In this document: in pieces, positions 4,490 through 11,286 of the stretch
Layout of the letters: each line of letters begins with the position of its first letter
How positions within the stretch are numbered: position 1 is the stretch's first letter
Source of the DNA: Methyloversatilis sp. XJ19-49
GTDB lineage: Bacteria > Pseudomonadota > Gammaproteobacteria > Burkholderiales > Rhodocyclaceae
NCBI RefSeq assembly: GCF_024580145.1
Contig: NZ_JANINI010000002.1
Coordinates: 62,001 to 126,000, forward strand
Length of the DNA stretch: 64,000 nt
Reading direction: 5' to 3'
Notes under the pieces: generated by a model
What the model was told of the DNA's origin: nothing
Databases searched by the model: none
Seen by the model: only the letters and a program-made list of their open reading frames with translations
Position numbers and translations under genes: made by a program

Positions 4490-5320
4490 TCAGGCCATGC
4501 GGCGGCGCATGAACGCCATACCGGCCAGGCCAAGGCCCAGCAAACCCAGTACGCCCGGTTCCGGGATCGGCTGACCGATCGCTTCGCGGAAAGTGGTCGC
4601 CAGCACGACGCGGTCGATCAGGACGTTGTCGCCCGGATCCAGATGCGCAGTGCGGATGCCGACGCGCGTGATCTGGTTGATGCCCGAATTGCCGACGAAG
4701 CTGGCGTCCGGCGTGCCGAGGTCACCTGCAGTCGGGTTCAGCCAGGCGTCGAAGTTGGTGTAGTTGCCGGCCGCGTTGCGGTACAGGTGACCGACGATCT
4801 GATGGGTCTGACCAAGCATCACGTTGCTGGACGCCAGAAAGCTGCCGTTGCTGCCGGTGGTGCGCACGAACAGGTCGTTGCGCGACGCGTCGTTGGTCAC
4901 CTCGTTGCCCTTGAGGCCGAGCGTCGGGCGATTCAAACCTTCGTTGGCGGCGCCGTTCTGCAGCCACAGGCCCAGAAAGTCGTTGTTGCCGATATTCGAA
5001 CCGGTCGCCACCTGAATGAAGAAGCTGACGAACACGCTGTCGCCGGTAAAGGCCGATGACAGGGCGCGGTGCGCCGCGTTGCCGGCGTTCGAGGTAAACG
5101 ATGCCGCGCGGTTGCCGTCCAGATCAACCGCCGGATCGCTGACCGAAGCAGCACCCGTGGCGCTCCAGCCGCCGCTCCACCCGGTACCGCCGTTGGCGCC
5201 GTTGAGCGCGCCGGTCGCGTAGGAAAAATCATCCGAAGCAATGATGGCGGCGGAAACCTGGCTGGCCGATGCGGCAAGCGCCAGTGTCAGTGTCAGTGCA
5301 ATCTTCGAGAATTTCATCAT
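4490..5320 (-). CDS. PEP-CTERM sorting domain-containing exported protein
   Basis: A 276-residue secreted protein. It begins with MMKFSKIALTLTLALAASAS, a signal peptide cut near VSA-A. The middle is rich in Gly, Asn, Ala and Ser and looks like a beta-sandwich surface domain. The end reads PIPEPGVLGLLGLGLAG followed by MAFMRRRMA: the PEP motif, a hydrophobic helix and a basic tail that define substrates of exosortase. Such proteins are exported with exopolysaccharide and support flocs or biofilm. No exosortase lies in the window. Two adjacent ATGs at 5320 and 5317 follow an AGGA; the second has the better spacing. A sigma-54-type promoter lies about 100 bp upstream. Confidence 0.9.
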   Translation of the reverse strand: MMKFSKIALTLTLALAASASQVSAAIIASDDFSYATGALNGANGGTGWSGGWSATGAASVSDPAVDLDGNRAASFTSNAGNAAHRALSSAFTGDSVFVSFFIQVATGSNIGNNDFLGLWLQNGAANEGLNRPTLGLKGNEVTNDASRNDLFVRTTGSNGSFLASSNVMLGQTHQIVGHLYRNAAGNYTNFDAWLNPTAGDLGTPDASFVGNSGINQITRVGIRTAHLDPGDNVLIDRVVLATTFREAIGQPIPEPGVLGLLGLGLAGMAFMRRRMA

Positions 5321-5418
5321 GGTGTCCTGATCGTGGCGGGCGAACATCCGGAGCGTGCCCGCATCATCTTTGTGTGGCGACTCGACGCCCATCGCTTCGA
5401 GCCTGACGGTTTCCAGTC

Positions 5419-5613: not shown

Positions 5614-6630
5614 ATGATCCCGACCGACCCCGCCGGCACCCGGCTGCAGCCTTCCTCACGACGCATCGGGCCGCCCGCCTGCGTCAGCATCGTCATCCCG
5701 GCCTATAACGAAGCGGGCGCGCTGGCCGCCACGCTGGACATGATCGCCGGCCACCTGTCGGCGCTGACACCCGCCTTCGAACTGGTGGTGGTCGATGACG
5801 GCAGCCTCGACGCGACGGCGCAGATCGCCTGCGATTGCGCGGCTCGCCTGCCCGTCACGCTGGTGCGCTTTTCGCGCAATTTCGGCAAGGAAGCAGCGAT
5901 ATCCGCCGGGCTGCAATACGCGCGCGGCGACGTGGTGGTGTGCATGGATGCCGACGGCCAGCATTCGGCCGAACTGCTGGGCGACATGCTGGCGCGCTGG
6001 CGCGACGGCTACGACATGGTCTATGCGGTACGCGCCGACCGCGGCGAACAGGGCCTGTTCAACCGGCTCGGCTCCCGGGTTTTCTACGGCCTGATGAATA
6101 TCGGTGGTCGGCTCGACATCCCGCCCAATGCCGGCGACTTCCGGCTGATGGACCGCTGCGTGGTCGATGCCCTGCTCGCGCTGCCGGAACGCCAGCGCTT
6201 CATGAAGGGCATGTACGCCTGGGTCGGCTTCCGCTCGATCGGCATTCCTTACACGCCGCTGCCGCGCGCAGCCGGCGTCACCACCTTCAACCGGCTCAAC
6301 CTGATGCGGCTGGCATGGACCGGGCTGACCAGCTTTTCGGTGCTGCCGCTGCGCATGGCCAGCCTGACCGGGCTGCTGCTGTCGACGCTGGCCTTTGCCT
6401 ATGGACTTTATGAGGTGATCGAAAAGCTGGTGTTCGGTATCGACCTCCCGGGCTGGCCGACCGTGGTGGTCAGCATCATGTTCTTCTCCGGCGTGCAGTT
6501 GCTGTTCATCGGCATCCTCGGCGAATACCTCGCGCGTGTTTACGAAGAGGTGAAGGGCCGGCCGCCGTATGTCGTTGCGGAACTCGTGCGGCGCGAGCAG
6601 GTGGCGCACGCAGACAGGCTAGAGGACTGA
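5614..6630 (+). CDS. GtrB-like polyprenyl-phosphate glycosyltransferase (GT2)
   Basis: A 338-residue membrane glycosyltransferase. Residues about 25-260 form a GT2 domain (VSIVIPAYNE, VVVDDGS, MDADGQH). Two C-terminal membrane segments and the ending ILGEYLARVYEEVKGRPPY are typical of GtrB/DPM1-type enzymes, which load a sugar from a nucleotide donor onto undecaprenyl phosphate on the cytoplasmic face. It heads a run with a GtrA flippase, a YdjC-family deacetylase and a GT39-like transferase, so its product is probably the lipid-linked donor for an extracytoplasmic modification. In Francisella FlmF2 and in the Bordetella lgm locus a related enzyme makes the HexNAc carrier used for lipid A. 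The sugar here is not known. Confidence 0.85.
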   Translation: MIPTDPAGTRLQPSSRRIGPPACVSIVIPAYNEAGALAATLDMIAGHLSALTPAFELVVVDDGSLDATAQIACDCAARLPVTLVRFSRNFGKEAAISAGLQYARGDVVVCMDADGQHSAELLGDMLARWRDGYDMVYAVRADRGEQGLFNRLGSRVFYGLMNIGGRLDIPPNAGDFRLMDRCVVDALLALPERQRFMKGMYAWVGFRSIGIPYTPLPRAAGVTTFNRLNLMRLAWTGLTSFSVLPLRMASLTGLLLSTLAFAYGLYEVIEKLVFGIDLPGWPTVVVSIMFFSGVQLLFIGILGEYLARVYEEVKGRPPYVVAELVRREQVAHADRLED

Positions 6631-6632
6631 AC

Positions 6633-7016
6633 ATGCGCGCCTCCGTGCTGCTCTTCCTCATCGTCGGCGGCTGCGCCGCGGGCGTGCATTATCTGGTCAC
6701 GCTGGCTGTGGATGCCGCCACCGGCGTGGATCCGGCGTGGTCAAACCTGATCGGCTTCGTGTGCGCCTTTCCGGTCAGCTACCTCGGCCACCGGCGCTTT
6801 TCGTTCGCCGGCACGCAAGCCAGCCACCGGCAGGCGCTGCCGCGGCTGCTGGCAGTGTCGTGCACCGCCTTCGTCGGCAACCAGTTGATGCTGGCCGCGC
6901 TGCTGCGCTACACGCCGCTGCCGCTGTGGATCGCACTGGCCATCGTGCTGGTGTGCGTCGCTGTCAGCACCTGGGTGCTCGGCCGCTACTGGGCGTTCGC
7001 ACACCGGACGGCATGA
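6633..7016 (+). CDS. GtrA family membrane protein, probable prenyl-phosphate-sugar flippase
   Basis: A 127-residue protein with four membrane segments in the GtrA pattern: a first helix at residues 3-20, GFVCAFPVSYLGHRRFSF before helix 3, and WVLGRYWAF at the end. GtrA proteins are thought to move undecaprenyl-phosphate-linked sugars across the inner membrane. It begins 2 bp after the GtrB-like stop and overlaps the deacetylase start by ATGA, so it is tightly coupled to both neighbours. Confidence 0.82.
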   Translation: MRASVLLFLIVGGCAAGVHYLVTLAVDAATGVDPAWSNLIGFVCAFPVSYLGHRRFSFAGTQASHRQALPRLLAVSCTAFVGNQLMLAALLRYTPLPLWIALAIVLVCVAVSTWVLGRYWAFAHRTA

Positions 7017-7792
7017 AGACGGTCTATCTGACCGCTGACGACTACGGCTGCCACCCGGCCGTCGATGCGGCGGTGCTCGATCTGATCGACGCCGGCCGCC
7101 TCAGCGGCGCGGCCTGCATGACGCGTGCGCCGGGCTGGCCGGCTGCGGCCAATCGTGTCGCCTCCCGCCGCAGCGCCACCGGGTTTGGCCTGCACCTGGA
7201 TTTCACCGAATTCGCGCCGGCACGCCGCAGCCTGTGGCCGCTGATTGTCCTGAGCCAGAGCCGCCGCCTCGATCAGATGTCGCTGCGCGACGAAGTCGCC
7301 GCTCAATGCGCACGGTTCGAAGACGCCACCGGCCACGCGCCGGACTACATCGACGGCCACCAGCATGTGCATCAGATGCCGCAGATCCGCGACGCGCTGA
7401 TCGACGTGCTGCTGACGCGCTATGGCAGCCGGCTGCCCTGGCTGCGCATCAGCGGCGCGCGCGCGGGCGACGGCTTCAAGCCGCGCTTCATTGCCGCGCT
7501 CGGTGCCCCTGCGCTGTTGCGCCGCGCCCGCGCCGAAGGTTTCCGCGTGATGCCGCGCCTGCTGGGCGCCTACGGCTTCGACTGCGACGCCGCCAGCTAC
7601 CGCAAACGGCTGGCGCACTGGTTCGCCACCGCCGATGACGGCGACGCGGTGATGTGCCATCCGGCGATGCAGGCCATGCCAGGCGATCCGATCGGCTGCG
7701 CGCGCGTGGTCGAACACGGCGTGCTGGCCGGGAGCGATTTCCAGGACCGGCTCGCAGCGACCGGCATTCAGATCGGGCGGCTACGACCGTGA
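7013..7792 (+). CDS. ChbG/HpnK (YdjC) family carbohydrate deacetylase, NaxD-like
   Basis: A 259-residue metal-dependent deacetylase. The metal site is visible: the Asp pair in VYLTADDYG, a His in GLHLDFTE and the His cluster in IDGHQHVHQMP. YdjC-family enzymes remove acetyl groups from N-acetyl sugars; members act on chitooligosaccharides (ChbG), hopanoid-linked GlcNAc (HpnK) or undecaprenyl-phosphate-linked HexNAc (NaxD, LgmC). The neighbours here, a GtrB-like transferase, a GtrA flippase and a GT39-like transferase, favour the last role. No hopanoid gene is present. The ATG at 7013 overlaps the gtrA stop (ATGA), indicating translational coupling. Confidence 0.85.
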   Translation: MKTVYLTADDYGCHPAVDAAVLDLIDAGRLSGAACMTRAPGWPAAANRVASRRSATGFGLHLDFTEFAPARRSLWPLIVLSQSRRLDQMSLRDEVAAQCARFEDATGHAPDYIDGHQHVHQMPQIRDALIDVLLTRYGSRLPWLRISGARAGDGFKPRFIAALGAPALLRRARAEGFRVMPRLLGAYGFDCDAASYRKRLAHWFATADDGDAVMCHPAMQAMPGDPIGCARVVEHGVLAGSDFQDRLAATGIQIGRLRP

Positions 7793-7912
7793 ACAGCTGG
7801 CATCCGGCCTCTCACCCTTGACGCCCCGCTTTCCAACCCATTCATCGACTGCACTGTCAGCGCGTGCGCAGGCAGCGCGTTACGCCTCTGCCCCCGGCTC
7901 CCGGCCCGCTCC

Positions 7913-9574
7913 ATGCATCCTTTGACACCGACCGCTACAACGTTTCACCCTGCAACACGCAGCCTCCCGCGCCTGACTGCACATGTCACGGGACTCGCGC
8001 TGTTCGCGTTCATTGCGTTGCATATCGCACTGACCTTCGGCCAGCACGGCATCAGCAACGACGAGTGGGTGCAGCACACCTACGGCCGGCTGCTGCTCGA
8101 CTACTACGCGTCCGGGCTGACCGACATGTCGGCCTTCCACTACAAGGACCTGTACCTGTATGGCGGGCTGTTCGACCTGATCGCTGCCGCGCTCGAACGC
8201 GTGCTGCCGATGAATGTGTGGGACATGCGCCATCTGCTGTCGGCTGCATTCGGTTTTGCCGGCATGGTCGCCGTGTATCGGCTGGCACGCCACCTGCTGA
8301 ACGACACCGCCGCCTGCATCGCGGTGGCACTGCTGATGCTCACCGGTGCCTGGAGCGGCGCGCTGTTCACCCACACGAAGGACATCCCGTTTGCCGCCTG
8401 CATGGCGTGGGTGACCTGGTACACGACGCTCATCGTGACGCGCCTGCCGGCACCGCCACTCGGTCTGGTGCTGAAGCTGGGCGTGGCGATCGGCTGCGCC
8501 TTCGGACTGCGCGTCGGTGCGGTATTCGGCGTCATGGTGCTCGGGTTCGGCGTGCTCGCTTCGATGGCGCTGGTCGACGGCGACTGGCGCGCCCGCCTCG
8601 CGCATCTGGGCCGCTCGCTGCGCACGCTGCTGCCCGCCCTGCCGGTCGCACTGGCGCTGATCGCGCTGTTCTGGCCCTGGGCGGCGCAGGCGCCGGGCAA
8701 TCTGATCAAGGCGCTGACCACCTTTTCGCACGTCACCTTCGCGATCCAGACCGTGCTCGACGGCCAGGTCATGGCGATCACCGAAGTGCCGCGCAGCTAC
8801 CTGCCGATCTATCTTGCAGTGCGTCTGCCGGAACTGGCGCTGGCCGGGCTCGTCGCCGCGCTGGGCATGCTGCTCACGGCGGTGCTCACCGCAGTGTTCA
8901 CTCCGGCGCTGGACGCGCGCCACCACCCGCTGCGACAGCACCTGCCCTGGCTGACGGTCATTCTGGCGGCGCTGTTGCCGCTGGCGCTGGCCATCGCGAC
9001 CCGGCCGGCGCTGTACAACGGCATCCGCCACTTCACCTTCCTGCTGCCGCCGCTGGCGGTCATCGCCGCCGCCGGGTTGTACGCCCTGTGGCGGCACGCC
9101 CGCGCCTCGCGCAGTCTGGCGGCTGCCTTCATCGCGCTGTGCCTCATCGGGGCGCTCGATCCGCTGGTCGCACTGGCGCGGCTGCATCCGTATCACTACG
9201 TCAATTACAACCGCCTGGCCGGCGGTTTCGAAGCGGCGGTCGCCGGGCGCTGGGAAGCCGATTACTGGTCGGACGGCGTGCGCGAAGCCAGCGGCCTGCT
9301 GCGCGATCATCTGAAGGGCACAACCCGGCCGGCCGCGCCCTGGCGGGTTGCGGTGTGCGCCGATCCGGTCGAAGCCGACGCCTGGCTCGGCCCGGAATTC
9401 GTCATCACCCGCGACTGGGTGAGCGCCGACTTCTTCATTTCGACCACGCACATGGACTGCGACAGCGTACTGGCCGGCCGCATCATTGGCCAGGTGGCAC
9501 GCGAAGGACTGCCGCTGACAATCCTGAAGGACCGGCGCATGCTGACGGCGGAACAGCGCCGGCTGCTGCGCTAG
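7913..9574 (+). CDS. GT39/ArnT-like integral membrane glycosyltransferase
   Basis: A 553-residue protein with about eleven membrane segments. The first extracytoplasmic loop carries ISNDEWVQHTYG, placing an Asp-Glu pair where GT-C enzymes have the catalytic acid. Further on, FTHTKDIPFA and LHPYHYVNYNRLAGG recall dolichyl-phosphate-mannose and ArnT/FlmK-type transferases, followed by a soluble tail of about 110 residues. Such enzymes use a lipid-linked sugar to modify lipid A, glycan or protein on the periplasmic side. It follows the deacetylase by 120 bp and is probably the last step of the same pathway. The acceptor is inferred, not seen. Confidence 0.75.
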   Translation: MHPLTPTATTFHPATRSLPRLTAHVTGLALFAFIALHIALTFGQHGISNDEWVQHTYGRLLLDYYASGLTDMSAFHYKDLYLYGGLFDLIAAALERVLPMNVWDMRHLLSAAFGFAGMVAVYRLARHLLNDTAACIAVALLMLTGAWSGALFTHTKDIPFAACMAWVTWYTTLIVTRLPAPPLGLVLKLGVAIGCAFGLRVGAVFGVMVLGFGVLASMALVDGDWRARLAHLGRSLRTLLPALPVALALIALFWPWAAQAPGNLIKALTTFSHVTFAIQTVLDGQVMAITEVPRSYLPIYLAVRLPELALAGLVAALGMLLTAVLTAVFTPALDARHHPLRQHLPWLTVILAALLPLALAIATRPALYNGIRHFTFLLPPLAVIAAAGLYALWRHARASRSLAAAFIALCLIGALDPLVALARLHPYHYVNYNRLAGGFEAAVAGRWEADYWSDGVREASGLLRDHLKGTTRPAAPWRVAVCADPVEADAWLGPEFVITRDWVSADFFISTTHMDCDSVLAGRIIGQVAREGLPLTILKDRRMLTAEQRRLLR

Positions 9575-9597: not shown

Positions 9598-11286
9598 ATG
9601 AGCCTCACCGATCCGCCGGTCGCCCGACATTTCCGCCAGATCCTGATGTGGCCGCTGCGGCTGATGCCGCTGCGCAGTGGTGATCAGGTGCAACGCCACC
9701 CGCAGGCACTGGCCGCCATCACCGAGGGCAATCCCTGGCGCGAACAGCGCGACGAATTCACCGGTTCGCCGGCCGATTTCCACGAGCGGCACTACCGCGA
9801 ATTCGTAACCTTTCTGCCGCATGTGCAGCGCTTCCTGTATGGCCAGGGGCGGTCGAGTTCGACCCAGCCCGGCTACGGTGAATCGCCGATCCGCGTATTC
9901 CGGCGCAACGATGTGGCCGCGGTGCGGCTCGGCTGCGAAGACGGCAGCACGCTCGACCTCGCGGTACAGCACATCGACCTGTACTTCTTCTACGACGTGG
10001 ATGTGGTCATCCTCGCGATGGAAGTGCATGCCGACAACCTTCCGCTGGCCCGGGTGCAGGAACTGCTCTTCCGCTTCGGACGCGCCTTTCCGGCGAAGTG
10101 GAGCAATGCCGATACGGATGGGCGCGCAGCACAGTGCATGCGCACCGTACAGTGGGTCGGCCACAATGGTGCGGTGCTGGCCGAGTCCGACTATGGCGAC
10201 CGCGAACGCTATCTGCACCACGCCTGGGAGCACCGCGCCTCGTGCATCGGACGCCACTGGGAATATCTGCTGCAGCCCATGGTGCTGCACCATTCGGAAG
10301 CGGTCGGCGACATCCGCTACCGGCAGCTGGAATACCACCGGCTGCCGAAGATGACCTTCCTGTCCTTCGACGATCCGTTCGCGCTGAGCCGCGAGGATTT
10401 CGTGCGTCTGGGCCAGGCCACGCAGCCGGACGACGGCCATCCACTTCCGTATTCGGAACAGGTGATGGACGAGTTCGAGCGCACCGCCTGCTATGACCGC
10501 TTCTGGGTGCCGGCGCGGCGCAGCGACAACGCCAGCACGCGCGTCATCTGCACCGGCCCCTCGATGGTGATGGTGGGCAAGCACGGCCTGGCCGGCTATT
10601 CCGACCCGCAGAACGGCCTGCTGGCGGAGTTCCGCCACCAGTACTTCCTGATCGGCCTGATTGCGCACTTCCACCGCGCGTCGCTGCTGATGCTGATGGA
10701 CCGGCTGGTGGTCGCGGTCAGCCTGCTCGACGCCGACGACGTCGATTCGCGCCGCCGTTTCAAGCGCGGCATCCGCCAGACGATGGAAATCTTCCTGCGC
10801 TTCAACCACCGCTACTGGTTCGGCGAGGTATCGAAGCAGTCGATGGCCAAGGACCTGTTCGACCTGTGGACCCGCAACCTCGGCAACGAGGCGCTTTACA
10901 ACGAGCTGCGCGCCGAGGTGCTGGACATGGACAACTACCTCGAAGCGGACGACAGCCGGCGCCAGAACGAAACCCTGCTGCGCCTCACCGTGGTGACCAT
11001 CTTCGGTCTGGTCGGCACCATCGTCACCGGCTTCCTCGGCATGAACATCTTCGACGGCCCGCCGGCCACATTGGCCGGCAAGATCGGCGCCGTGCTGGTG
11101 GTGACTGTACCGACCGTGCTGCTCGCTTTCTACACGCTGAAGAAATCGAGTGCGCTGTCGGAATTCTTCGACGCGGTGTCGGACGACACGCTGACCCGGC
11201 GACAGAAGTTCAAGTCCTTCCTGCGCATCTGGCGCGGCCGTCCGACCGGACGCCGGCGCAACGACCTGCGGGCGCGCAAGCCCTGA
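9598..11286 (+). CDS. CorA-like transporter-family protein with a large N-terminal domain
   Basis: A 562-residue protein. Two membrane segments lie at the C-terminus, the first ending in GFLGMNIFDG, which is the GMN signature of CorA magnesium channels. The second is about VLVVTVPTVLLAFYTL, followed by a basic cytoplasmic tail. The region before it is about 460 residues, roughly twice that of CorA, and contains a hydrophobic patch near YFLIGLIAHFHRASLLMLMD. Related long CorA-like proteins are known but poorly characterised. It starts 23 bp after the GT39-like gene and is likely co-transcribed. Ion selectivity cannot be told from the sequence. Confidence 0.75.
   Translation: MSLTDPPVARHFRQILMWPLRLMPLRSGDQVQRHPQALAAITEGNPWREQRDEFTGSPADFHERHYREFVTFLPHVQRFLYGQGRSSSTQPGYGESPIRVFRRNDVAAVRLGCEDGSTLDLAVQHIDLYFFYDVDVVILAMEVHADNLPLARVQELLFRFGRAFPAKWSNADTDGRAAQCMRTVQWVGHNGAVLAESDYGDRERYLHHAWEHRASCIGRHWEYLLQPMVLHHSEAVGDIRYRQLEYHRLPKMTFLSFDDPFALSREDFVRLGQATQPDDGHPLPYSEQVMDEFERTACYDRFWVPARRSDNASTRVICTGPSMVMVGKHGLAGYSDPQNGLLAEFRHQYFLIGLIAHFHRASLLMLMDRLVVAVSLLDADDVDSRRRFKRGIRQTMEIFLRFNHRYWFGEVSKQSMAKDLFDLWTRNLGNEALYNELRAEVLDMDNYLEADDSRRQNETLLRLTVVTIFGLVGTIVTGFLGMNIFDGPPATLAGKIGAVLVVTVPTVLLAFYTLKKSSALSEFFDAVSDDTLTRRQKFKSFLRIWRGRPTGRRRNDLRARKP

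What the first reader, a model, noticed from the sequence alone, without database searches (positions are those of the whole stretch)
5614..9574. Complete putative amino-sugar lipid A (or glycolipid) modification locus: GtrB-like, GtrA, NaxD-like, GT39-like
Four adjacent genes supply every step of a known chemistry: loading HexNAc onto undecaprenyl phosphate (GtrB-like), flipping (GtrA), N-deacetylation (YdjC/ChbG family with its DD and His residues), and periplasmic transfer by a GT-C enzyme. Francisella FlmF2-NaxD-FlmK and the Bordetella lgm genes work in this way and add galactosamine or glucosamine to lipid A phosphates, giving resistance to cationic peptides. An apparently environmental betaproteobacterium with the full set in one run is worth testing. 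The acceptor may be lipid A, another glycan or a protein.
Basis: partly seen in the sequence, partly recalled or inferred. Interest (0 to 1): 0.75.

Follow-up and report, generated by a model that had tools for sequence, protein, structure and literature searches.

The report
Amino-sugar transfer genes with unusual transferase
Four neighbouring genes in an environmental bacterium look like a complete kit for making an amino sugar on a lipid carrier, flipping it across the membrane and attaching it to the cell envelope, but the final attaching enzyme shows no sequence match to the known lipid A enzymes, so what it decorates is still open.

Summary
In detail: four intact genes lie head to tail at 5614-9574, a GtrB/ArnC-like GT2, GtrA, a YdjC deacetylase with its catalytic residues, and a GT-C transferase (PMT_2).

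The donor half is well supported. GT2, GtrA and YdjC match the naxD-type locus of Acinetobacter baumannii (44, 37 and 31% identity), and the deacetylase groups with NaxD, away from ChbG. The hopanoid rival fails: HpnK scores far below cut-off and no hopene cyclase was found in the genome.

The transferase half differs. The A. baumannii GT39 and two loci of the window's order match the ArnT model (172-186 bits); the window's GT-C and one tested relative match no NCBIfam model. This GT-C family recurs with the GT2-YdjC pair in rearranged orders, is fused to the GT2 once, and sits unlinked in genomes that hold the pair elsewhere (pair in 6 of 13 genera with the GT-C, 15 of 200 without).

Most likely it transfers a hexosamine from undecaprenyl phosphate to a periplasmic acceptor. 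Lipid A phosphate is possible but lacks homology support. I read it as a new variant of a known kind: a common donor cassette with an unassigned transferase.

The parts
5614..6630 (+). GT2 polyprenyl-phosphate (N-acetyl)hexosamine transferase, GtrB/ArnC/PgfS type, with two C-terminal membrane helices by hydropathy
   Evidence: best NCBIfam matches PgfS 240 and ArnC 155 bits, both under cut-off; 44% to the A. baumannii locus GT2; 39% YfdH; 30% ArnC
6633..7016 (+). GtrA family membrane protein, putative flippase of the lipid-linked sugar
   Evidence: the only PF04138 match found in the genome; 37% over 91 aa to the A. baumannii GtrA
7013..7792 (+). YdjC/ChbG-family N-deacetylase on the NaxD side of the family tree, no membrane helix by hydropathy
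   Evidence: 31%; catalytic residues; trees
7913..9574 (+). GT-C transferase of an unassigned PMT_2 family: DE motif at D50-E51 after the first helix, C-terminal hydrophilic domain with two cysteines (C482, C516)
9598..11286 (+). CorA-like protein 23 nt downstream, possibly co-transcribed; found next to the GT-C in L002-L006 but not in L007-L010, so not a core part

Best explanation
The locus encodes a four-protein amino-sugar transfer system. The GT2 loads an N-acetylhexosamine from UDP onto undecaprenyl phosphate at the cytoplasmic face; the YdjC/NaxD-like enzyme removes the acetyl group while the sugar is still cytoplasmic; GtrA flips undecaprenyl-phosphate hexosamine; the GT-C transfers the hexosamine from that carrier to an acceptor on the periplasmic face. 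Inferred from homology: the loading, deacetylation and flipping steps. Shown from genome comparison: that this GT-C family tends to go with the donor pair. Not shown: that the sugar is GlcN or GalN, that the GT-C takes it, and the acceptor. I give LPS (lipid A phosphate or inner core) about one chance in two, lipid A phosphate itself about one in three.
For: Four genes in close order. GT2, GtrA and YdjC all match the YdjC-GT2-GtrA-GT39 locus of A. baumannii, whose deacetylase start has PmrA-like boxes upstream, as PMC10927774 describes for naxD (passages). The window YdjC lies on the NaxD side of the tree, separated from ChbG at 100/99, and keeps the conserved residues. Conserved partnership: 9 of 9 named relatives; rearranged orders in L071, L072, L091, L092; GT2 and GT-C in one 939-residue frame with YdjC divergent beside it in L073. 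Unlinked: of 10 GT-C genomes without linkage whose YdjC surroundings I read, 8 have a GT2 next to YdjC, 5 of them NaxD-side. In 4 of these 5 (G128, G464, G567, G638) an ArnT-type query found nothing. Genus-level association 6 of 13 against 15 of 200, Fisher p 0.0005; counting genomes with only those checked, 7 of 30 against 26 of 368, p 0.007 (tallies made by hand).
Against: 7 of 35 GT-C genomes searched have no YdjC, and 2 of the 10 unlinked genomes read (both of one genus) have YdjC without a GT2 beside it, so the GT-C family as a whole is not bound to an amino sugar; some members sit beside a GtrB-like GT2 alone (L084, L085). Three of the eight unlinked pairs are ChbG-side, and ChbG-side YdjC with a GT2 beside it also occurs in 10 of 51 genomes without this GT-C. 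An ArnT-type query matches 6 of 15 GT-C genomes (G792 and G918 at E about 1e-20, G303, G134, G493; the window's own genome only weakly, E 5e-4), so another consumer of the donor is possible there. The genus statistic ignores relatedness. Methylovorus lacks an adjacent GtrA. The 120-nt gap before the GT-C leaves co-transcription untested. No structure could be predicted.
Confidence: 0.68

Rival explanations
1. True lipid A phosphate hexosamine system, working as the Bordetella lgm locus or the Francisella/Acinetobacter NaxD systems: the GT-C caps lipid A phosphates and lowers surface charge.
For: Same donor genes as the naxD-type locus; deletion of the Bordetella lgm locus removes lipid A species 161 mass units heavier (PMC11895810 passages); the deacetylases that join the window's eight-member clade next are those of two ArnT-type loci of the same order, L207 and L208 (92/83 support).
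Against: The GT-C has no ArnT match by blastp or NCBIfam, and its family profile finds no transferase among solved structures, while the A. baumannii, L207 and L208 enzymes all match the ArnT model. No PmrA-type box in the 64 kb window.
Confidence: 0.33
2. The hexosamine goes to another envelope acceptor: LPS core or O-antigen sugars, a phospholipid or other membrane glycolipid, an exopolysaccharide or a protein.
For: The same donor cassette stands elsewhere beside other PMT_2 transferases without an ArnT match, such as those of Variovorax (L029), L182, L185, L203 and L213, and in Sphingomonas a GT87 stands beside a YdjC and a different kind of GT2 (L033); this suggests that the acceptor is set by the transferase. 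Amino-sugar phospholipids and glycolipids exist (PMC12713373, abstract and passages; PMC10128005, passages).
Against: I recognised no acceptor genes in the cluster; GlcN-PG and HNHDRG are made by other enzyme families, with no GT-C named in the passages that I saw.
Confidence: 0.4
3. O-antigen glucosylation (GtrABC) with a deacetylase by chance beside it.
For: The GT2 is nearer YfdH (39%) than ArnC (30%).
Against: The A. baumannii locus GT2 shows the same leaning (45% YfdH, 32% ArnC), so it says nothing against a HexNAc. The deacetylase is conserved with the set across lineages. No blastp match of the GT-C to YfdI.
Confidence: 0.07
4. Hopanoid glucosamine pathway (HpnI/HpnK).
For: YdjC family membership; HpnK is the top NCBIfam hit of the window YdjC.
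Against: HpnK 49 bits against a cut-off of 232.6; no squalene-hopene cyclase match in the genome; the GT2's best NCBIfam models are PgfS and ArnC.
Confidence: 0.01

Closest known systems
naxD-type locus of Acinetobacter baumannii (L030, CP040041: YdjC-GT2-GtrA-GT39)
   Same: same four functional classes in one run; GT2 44%, GtrA 37%, YdjC 31% identical
   Different: its GT39 is ArnT-like (28.7% to E. coli ArnT, 186 bits to the ArnT model); the window's GT-C is not; gene order differs; PmrA-like boxes upstream there, none in the window
Bordetella lgmA-D lipid A glucosamine locus
Francisella FlmF2-NaxD-FlmK
   Same: proposed chemistry: undecaprenyl-phosphate HexNAc, deacetylation, periplasmic transfer (recalled; FlmF2 and FlmK as lipid A galactosamine genes in passages of PMC4688374 and PMC8306577)
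   Different: sequences not fetched or compared here
Three-component glycosylation systems (GtrABC and relatives; PMC11127046, passages)
   Same: GT2 that loads undecaprenyl phosphate, GtrA-type flippase, GT-C transferase
   Different: an added deacetylase would make the sugar cationic; a GT-C family with no named model
GpgSDF (GlcN-phosphatidylglycerol, P. aeruginosa) and HexSDF (C. difficile)
   Same: add HexNAc, deacetylate and (proposed) flip, giving an amino-sugar membrane lipid
   Different: GpgS is GT4 and GpgD is COG3233 in the paper's table; HexS is annotated as an MGDG synthase; no undecaprenyl carrier or GT-C for the sugar in the passages I saw

Membership tests
Lipid A hexosamine systems (Lgm, FlmF2-NaxD-FlmK, A. 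baumannii naxD) | polyprenyl-phosphate GT2 | tested here: met
   by homology: 44% to the A. baumannii GT2, E 9e-98; closest solved relatives are Sll0501 and ArnC
Lipid A hexosamine systems (Lgm, FlmF2-NaxD-FlmK, A. baumannii naxD) | NaxD-type deacetylase with catalytic residues | tested here: met
   activity not tested
Lipid A hexosamine systems (Lgm, FlmF2-NaxD-FlmK, A. baumannii naxD) | ArnT-family lipid A transferase | tested here: not met
   no blastp hit to E. coli ArnT or the A. baumannii GT39 at E 10; no NCBIfam hit; positive controls score 172-186 bits. FlmK and LgmB themselves not compared
Lipid A hexosamine systems (Lgm, FlmF2-NaxD-FlmK, A. baumannii naxD) | hexosamine on lipid A phosphate | not testable with these tools
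   needs lipid A mass spectrometry
Three-component glycosylation systems | GT2 + GtrA-type flippase + GT-C in one locus | tested here: met
Three-component glycosylation systems | transfer from undecaprenyl-phosphate sugar in the periplasm | not testable with these tools
   inferred from families only
Hopanoid HpnK | HpnK equivalog score and a hopene cyclase in the genome | tested here: not met
   49 of 232.6 bits; no cyclase match
Chitin disaccharide deacetylase (ChbG) | ChbG equivalog score / clade | tested here: not met
   47 of 227 bits; tree separates ChbG, 100/99
ArnT by structure | same fold and phosphate-binding residues as ArnT | not tested

The most novel reading that the evidence does not exclude
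The GT-C founds an unassigned family of hexosamine transferases that uses the NaxD-type donor (undecaprenyl-phosphate GlcN or GalN) to decorate an acceptor other than lipid A phosphate, so that a single widespread donor cassette serves several exchangeable transferases (ArnT type, Variovorax PMT_2 type, this one, perhaps a GT87 type), each giving the cell surface a different cationic amino sugar.
Probability: 0.4. Interest if true: 0.62.

Novelty: new variant of a known kind. Interest (0 to 1): 0.42.

Why it matters
NaxD-type deacetylases are readily taken as a sign of lipid A hexosamine and polymyxin resistance (my framing). Among 79 YdjC-bearing genomes without this GT-C, 24 carry a NaxD-side deacetylase with a GT2 within 1.5 kb, and only two of the 79 have an ArnT-type enzyme in the neighbourhood read (the rest of those genomes was not searched for ArnT). 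Together with the window's cluster this suggests that the donor may often be used for something else. If so, calling resistance from naxD-like genes alone over-calls, and there is a set of uncharacterised amino-sugar transferases to assign, testable by simple deletions in harmless methylotrophs.

Tried and rejected
Considered and rejected: hopanoid pathway; O-antigen glucosylation as such; PEP-CTERM protein as a partner (its gene is beside the cluster in L002 and L003 but gave no match in L004, L005 or L006); CorA-like gene as a core part (adjacent in L002-L006 only). A single clade for all GT-Cs linked to YdjC is rejected (p-AU 1e-21): the tree needs three changes of linkage, two of them forced by well-supported branches.

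Led nowhere: profile search of solved structures with the GT-C alignment (three nanobodies, best E 0.02); hhalign of the GT-C profile against single sequences (probability at most 1.4%, and equally empty for another PMT_2 protein of the same genome and for an unrelated transporter, so uninformative); promoter/terminator scan (no more than shuffles give); literature on Methyloversatilis lipid A (12 papers listed, none on it by title); papers with four of five terms for an undecaprenyl-phosphate hexosamine deacetylase with a GT-C (0 papers). First reads of the loci in the box failed or were jumbled because the files were not yet there or hold many records; repeated.

Limits and rows left out: the NaxD-side or ChbG-side label of the 79 comparison genomes is by best tblastn match, one YdjC neighbourhood per genome. 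Of the 30 GT-C genomes of the phylum draw I read the GT-C surroundings in 21 (own included) and not in 9. YdjC surroundings of 13 further GT-C genomes with YdjC were not read (7 of genus g363, 6 of g355), and in G418 one of two. The 37-row GT-C tree leaves out L003, L004 and L008, near copies of other rows. L090 was taken as a second copy of L008 from its contig length and not used. In the 45-row trees three YdjC rows of genus g355 were dropped (long or fused) and 19 of the 26 comparison loci with a pair were used. The GT2 tree has long branches that meet, so I draw nothing from its deep forks. The A. baumannii gene is called naxD-type from its gene set, species and PmrA-like boxes; the record itself says ChbG/HpnK family deacetylase. 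The boxes match the looser pattern; the strict TTTAAG repeat was not found, and no chance rate was computed.
Full report
Observation. The first three are tightly packed (2 nt apart, then a 4-nt overlap), with 120 nt before the GT-C and 23 nt between it and a CorA-like gene. Pfam confirms each family over its cut-off. The nearest named relatives are Methyloversatilis MAGs (GT2 95-97%, GT-C 92-94% identical), so the window is from or near that genus (inference). In its genome (4.1 Mb, 45 contigs) one YdjC and one GtrA were found, both here, and three PMT_2 transferases, the other two on another contig.

The donor half. By blastp the window proteins match the A. baumannii run YdjC-GT2-GtrA-GT39 (L030): GT2 44%, E 9e-98; GtrA 37% over 91 residues, E 2e-16; YdjC 31%, E 1e-40. 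I take the A. baumannii run as the naxD locus: it has the right gene set in that species, and PmrA-like boxes (HTTAAD-N5-HTTAAD) lie at L030:4888 and 4899, about 100 nt before the deacetylase start. PMC10927774 reports such boxes upstream of naxD (passages). PMC6635527 describes NaxD, after earlier work, as the GalNAc deacetylase behind lipid A galactosamine, but found its overexpression not sufficient for colistin resistance in the strain studied (passages). The window deacetylase keeps residues that are invariant across nine YdjC proteins including the A. baumannii one and ChbG: D9, D10, H61, D114, H116, H118, H120, H216. In a tree of 45 YdjC proteins it lies on the side that holds the A. 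baumannii protein, separated from ChbG at 100/99. It scores far below the HpnK and ChbG equivalog cut-offs, as the A. baumannii protein does. No squalene-hopene cyclase was found in the genome.

The transferase half. The window GT-C finds neither ArnT nor the A. baumannii GT39 by blastp at E 10 and no NCBIfam model, and the profile of its family finds only three nanobodies among solved structures. The controls behave: the A. baumannii GT39 matches E. coli ArnT (28.7%, E 2e-32) and the ArnT model with 186 bits, and two unnamed loci of the window's order, L207 and L208, match it with 183 and 172 bits. Of 37 aligned members of the window's GT-C family 35 match Pfam PMT_2 and 1 matches PMT, so it belongs to the GT-C superfamily but to a family without a model of its own among those searched. 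Conserved features are the DE motif at D50-E51 after the first helix, K156-D157, R200, R372-H373 and a hydrophilic C-terminal domain with C482 and C516. All are invariant in the 12-member alignment; in 37 members D157, R200, R372 and H373 stay invariant and D50 nearly so, while E51, K156 and the cysteines are not on the list.

How the family is distributed. The GT-C profile found 4 of 369 genomes of the class, 30 of 398 of the phylum and 6 of 200 of the order, the window's own genome included in each. It travels with the donor genes in three arrangements: GT2-GtrA-YdjC-GT-C in the window and L002-L006; GT-C-GT2-(GtrA)-YdjC in Methylovorus (L007, L008, no adjacent GtrA) and L071, L091, L092; and divergent YdjC with GT2-GT-C-GtrA in Hydrogenophilus (L009, L010) and L072. 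In L073 the GT2 and the GT-C are one open frame of 939 residues, with YdjC divergent beside it. The linked members do not form one clade.

Where the GT-C stands alone, the pair is often elsewhere in the genome. Of 35 GT-C genomes searched, 28 have YdjC. I read YdjC surroundings in ten genomes without linkage (G792, G303, G128, G134, G464, G638, G493, G382, G418, G567): eight have a GT2 next to YdjC, five of them on the NaxD side of the tree (G792, G128, G464, G638, G567) and three on the ChbG side; the two of genus g355 (G382, G418) have none. G128 has a NaxD-side GT2-GtrA-YdjC trio, this GT-C elsewhere, and no match to the ArnT-type query; G464, G567 and G638 likewise give no match, but G792 does. 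In all, that query matched 6 of 15 genomes tried, the window's own only weakly. Also against a tight bond, 7 of the 35 genomes have no YdjC, and some GT-Cs sit next to a GtrB-like GT2 alone (L084, L085), so the family as a whole need not use an amino sugar.

Control. In the phylum draw, 102 of 398 genomes have YdjC, 79 of them without this GT-C. I read one YdjC neighbourhood in each of the 79: 28 have a NaxD-side deacetylase, 24 of these with a GT2 within 1.5 kb; two more (L207, L208) have a GT2 on the other strand beyond an ArnT-type and a GtrA gene. Of the 51 ChbG-side ones, 10 also have a GT2 within 1.5 kb. Counting the 26 NaxD-side loci by genus gives 15 of 200 genera without the GT-C, against 6 of 13 genera with it (Fisher p 0.0005; by genomes checked, 7 of 30 against 26 of 368, p 0.007, tallied by hand). 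This ignores relatedness among genera; three of the six share one family. In the same survey the partner next to the cassette varies: among the 26 loci an ArnT type in two (L207, L208), PMT_2 enzymes nearest to that of Variovorax or to another GT-C of the window's genome in seven (L182, L185, L186, L203, L206, L210, L213), and none that my queries recognised in 17. Among annotated records there is a GT39 in Variovorax, none adjacent in Comamonas (GT2-GtrA-YdjC only), and in Sphingomonas a GT87 beside a YdjC and a GT2 of a different kind (its GT2 matches the window's over 106 residues only).

Reading. The donor pathway is very probably undecaprenyl-phosphate HexNAc synthesis followed by deacetylation, with GtrA as the likely flippase. 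The order of steps (deacetylation before flipping) rests on the absence of hydrophobic helices in the YdjC protein and on what I recall for NaxD. The GT-C is the natural consumer of that donor. Whether the acceptor is lipid A cannot be read from the sequence: the part that would settle it, the transferase, is the part that differs. GlcN or GalN also remains open.

Novelty. Lipid A hexosamine loci and three-component systems are known (PMC11401268, PMC11895810 and PMC11127046, passages), and amino-sugar membrane lipids made by other enzymes are known (PMC12713373, abstract and passages; PMC10128005, passages). The listings of my searches showed no paper on this GT-C family with a NaxD-type donor; the library lacks most subscription journals. 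I call it a new variant of a known kind, of moderate interest.

Noticed in passing
   Followed up: partly
L022 (own genome C41:158000-172000): A second possible three-component set in the window's genome: a PMT_2 GT-C divergent from a GT2 followed by an LPG_synthase_TM membrane protein.
   Followed up: no
L097:5706-7361 (own genome C4): A 551-residue protein with weak similarity to ArnT (23% to E. coli ArnT, E 6e-4) and no Pfam hit at E 0.001.
   Followed up: partly
window 4490-5392 (-): PEP-CTERM sorting-signal protein upstream of the cluster; present at this place in L002 and L003 but with no match in L004, L005 and L006.
   Followed up: partly
window 9598-11286 (+): A 562-residue protein with a CorA match only at residues 435-516, 23 nt after the GT-C and next to it in 5 of 5 close relatives (L002-L006, cut short in L003).
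   Followed up: no
L135, L137: A YdjC domain at the start of a frame of about 680-690 residues in two genomes of one genus, next to a gene that looks to me like an ABC-2-type export permease (by eye, not searched); the rest of the protein was not identified.
   Followed up: no
L034 (Azospirillum ramasamyi plasmid): NaxD-side YdjC overlapping a DMT-family transporter gene, a possible ArnE/F-like flippase in place of GtrA, while this strain's GT-C of the window's family sits on another replicon (L031).
   Followed up: no
L030 (CP040041.1): A 561-kb A. baumannii record labelled plasmid carries gyrA beside the naxD-type genes, so it may be a piece of chromosome labelled as a plasmid.
   Followed up: no
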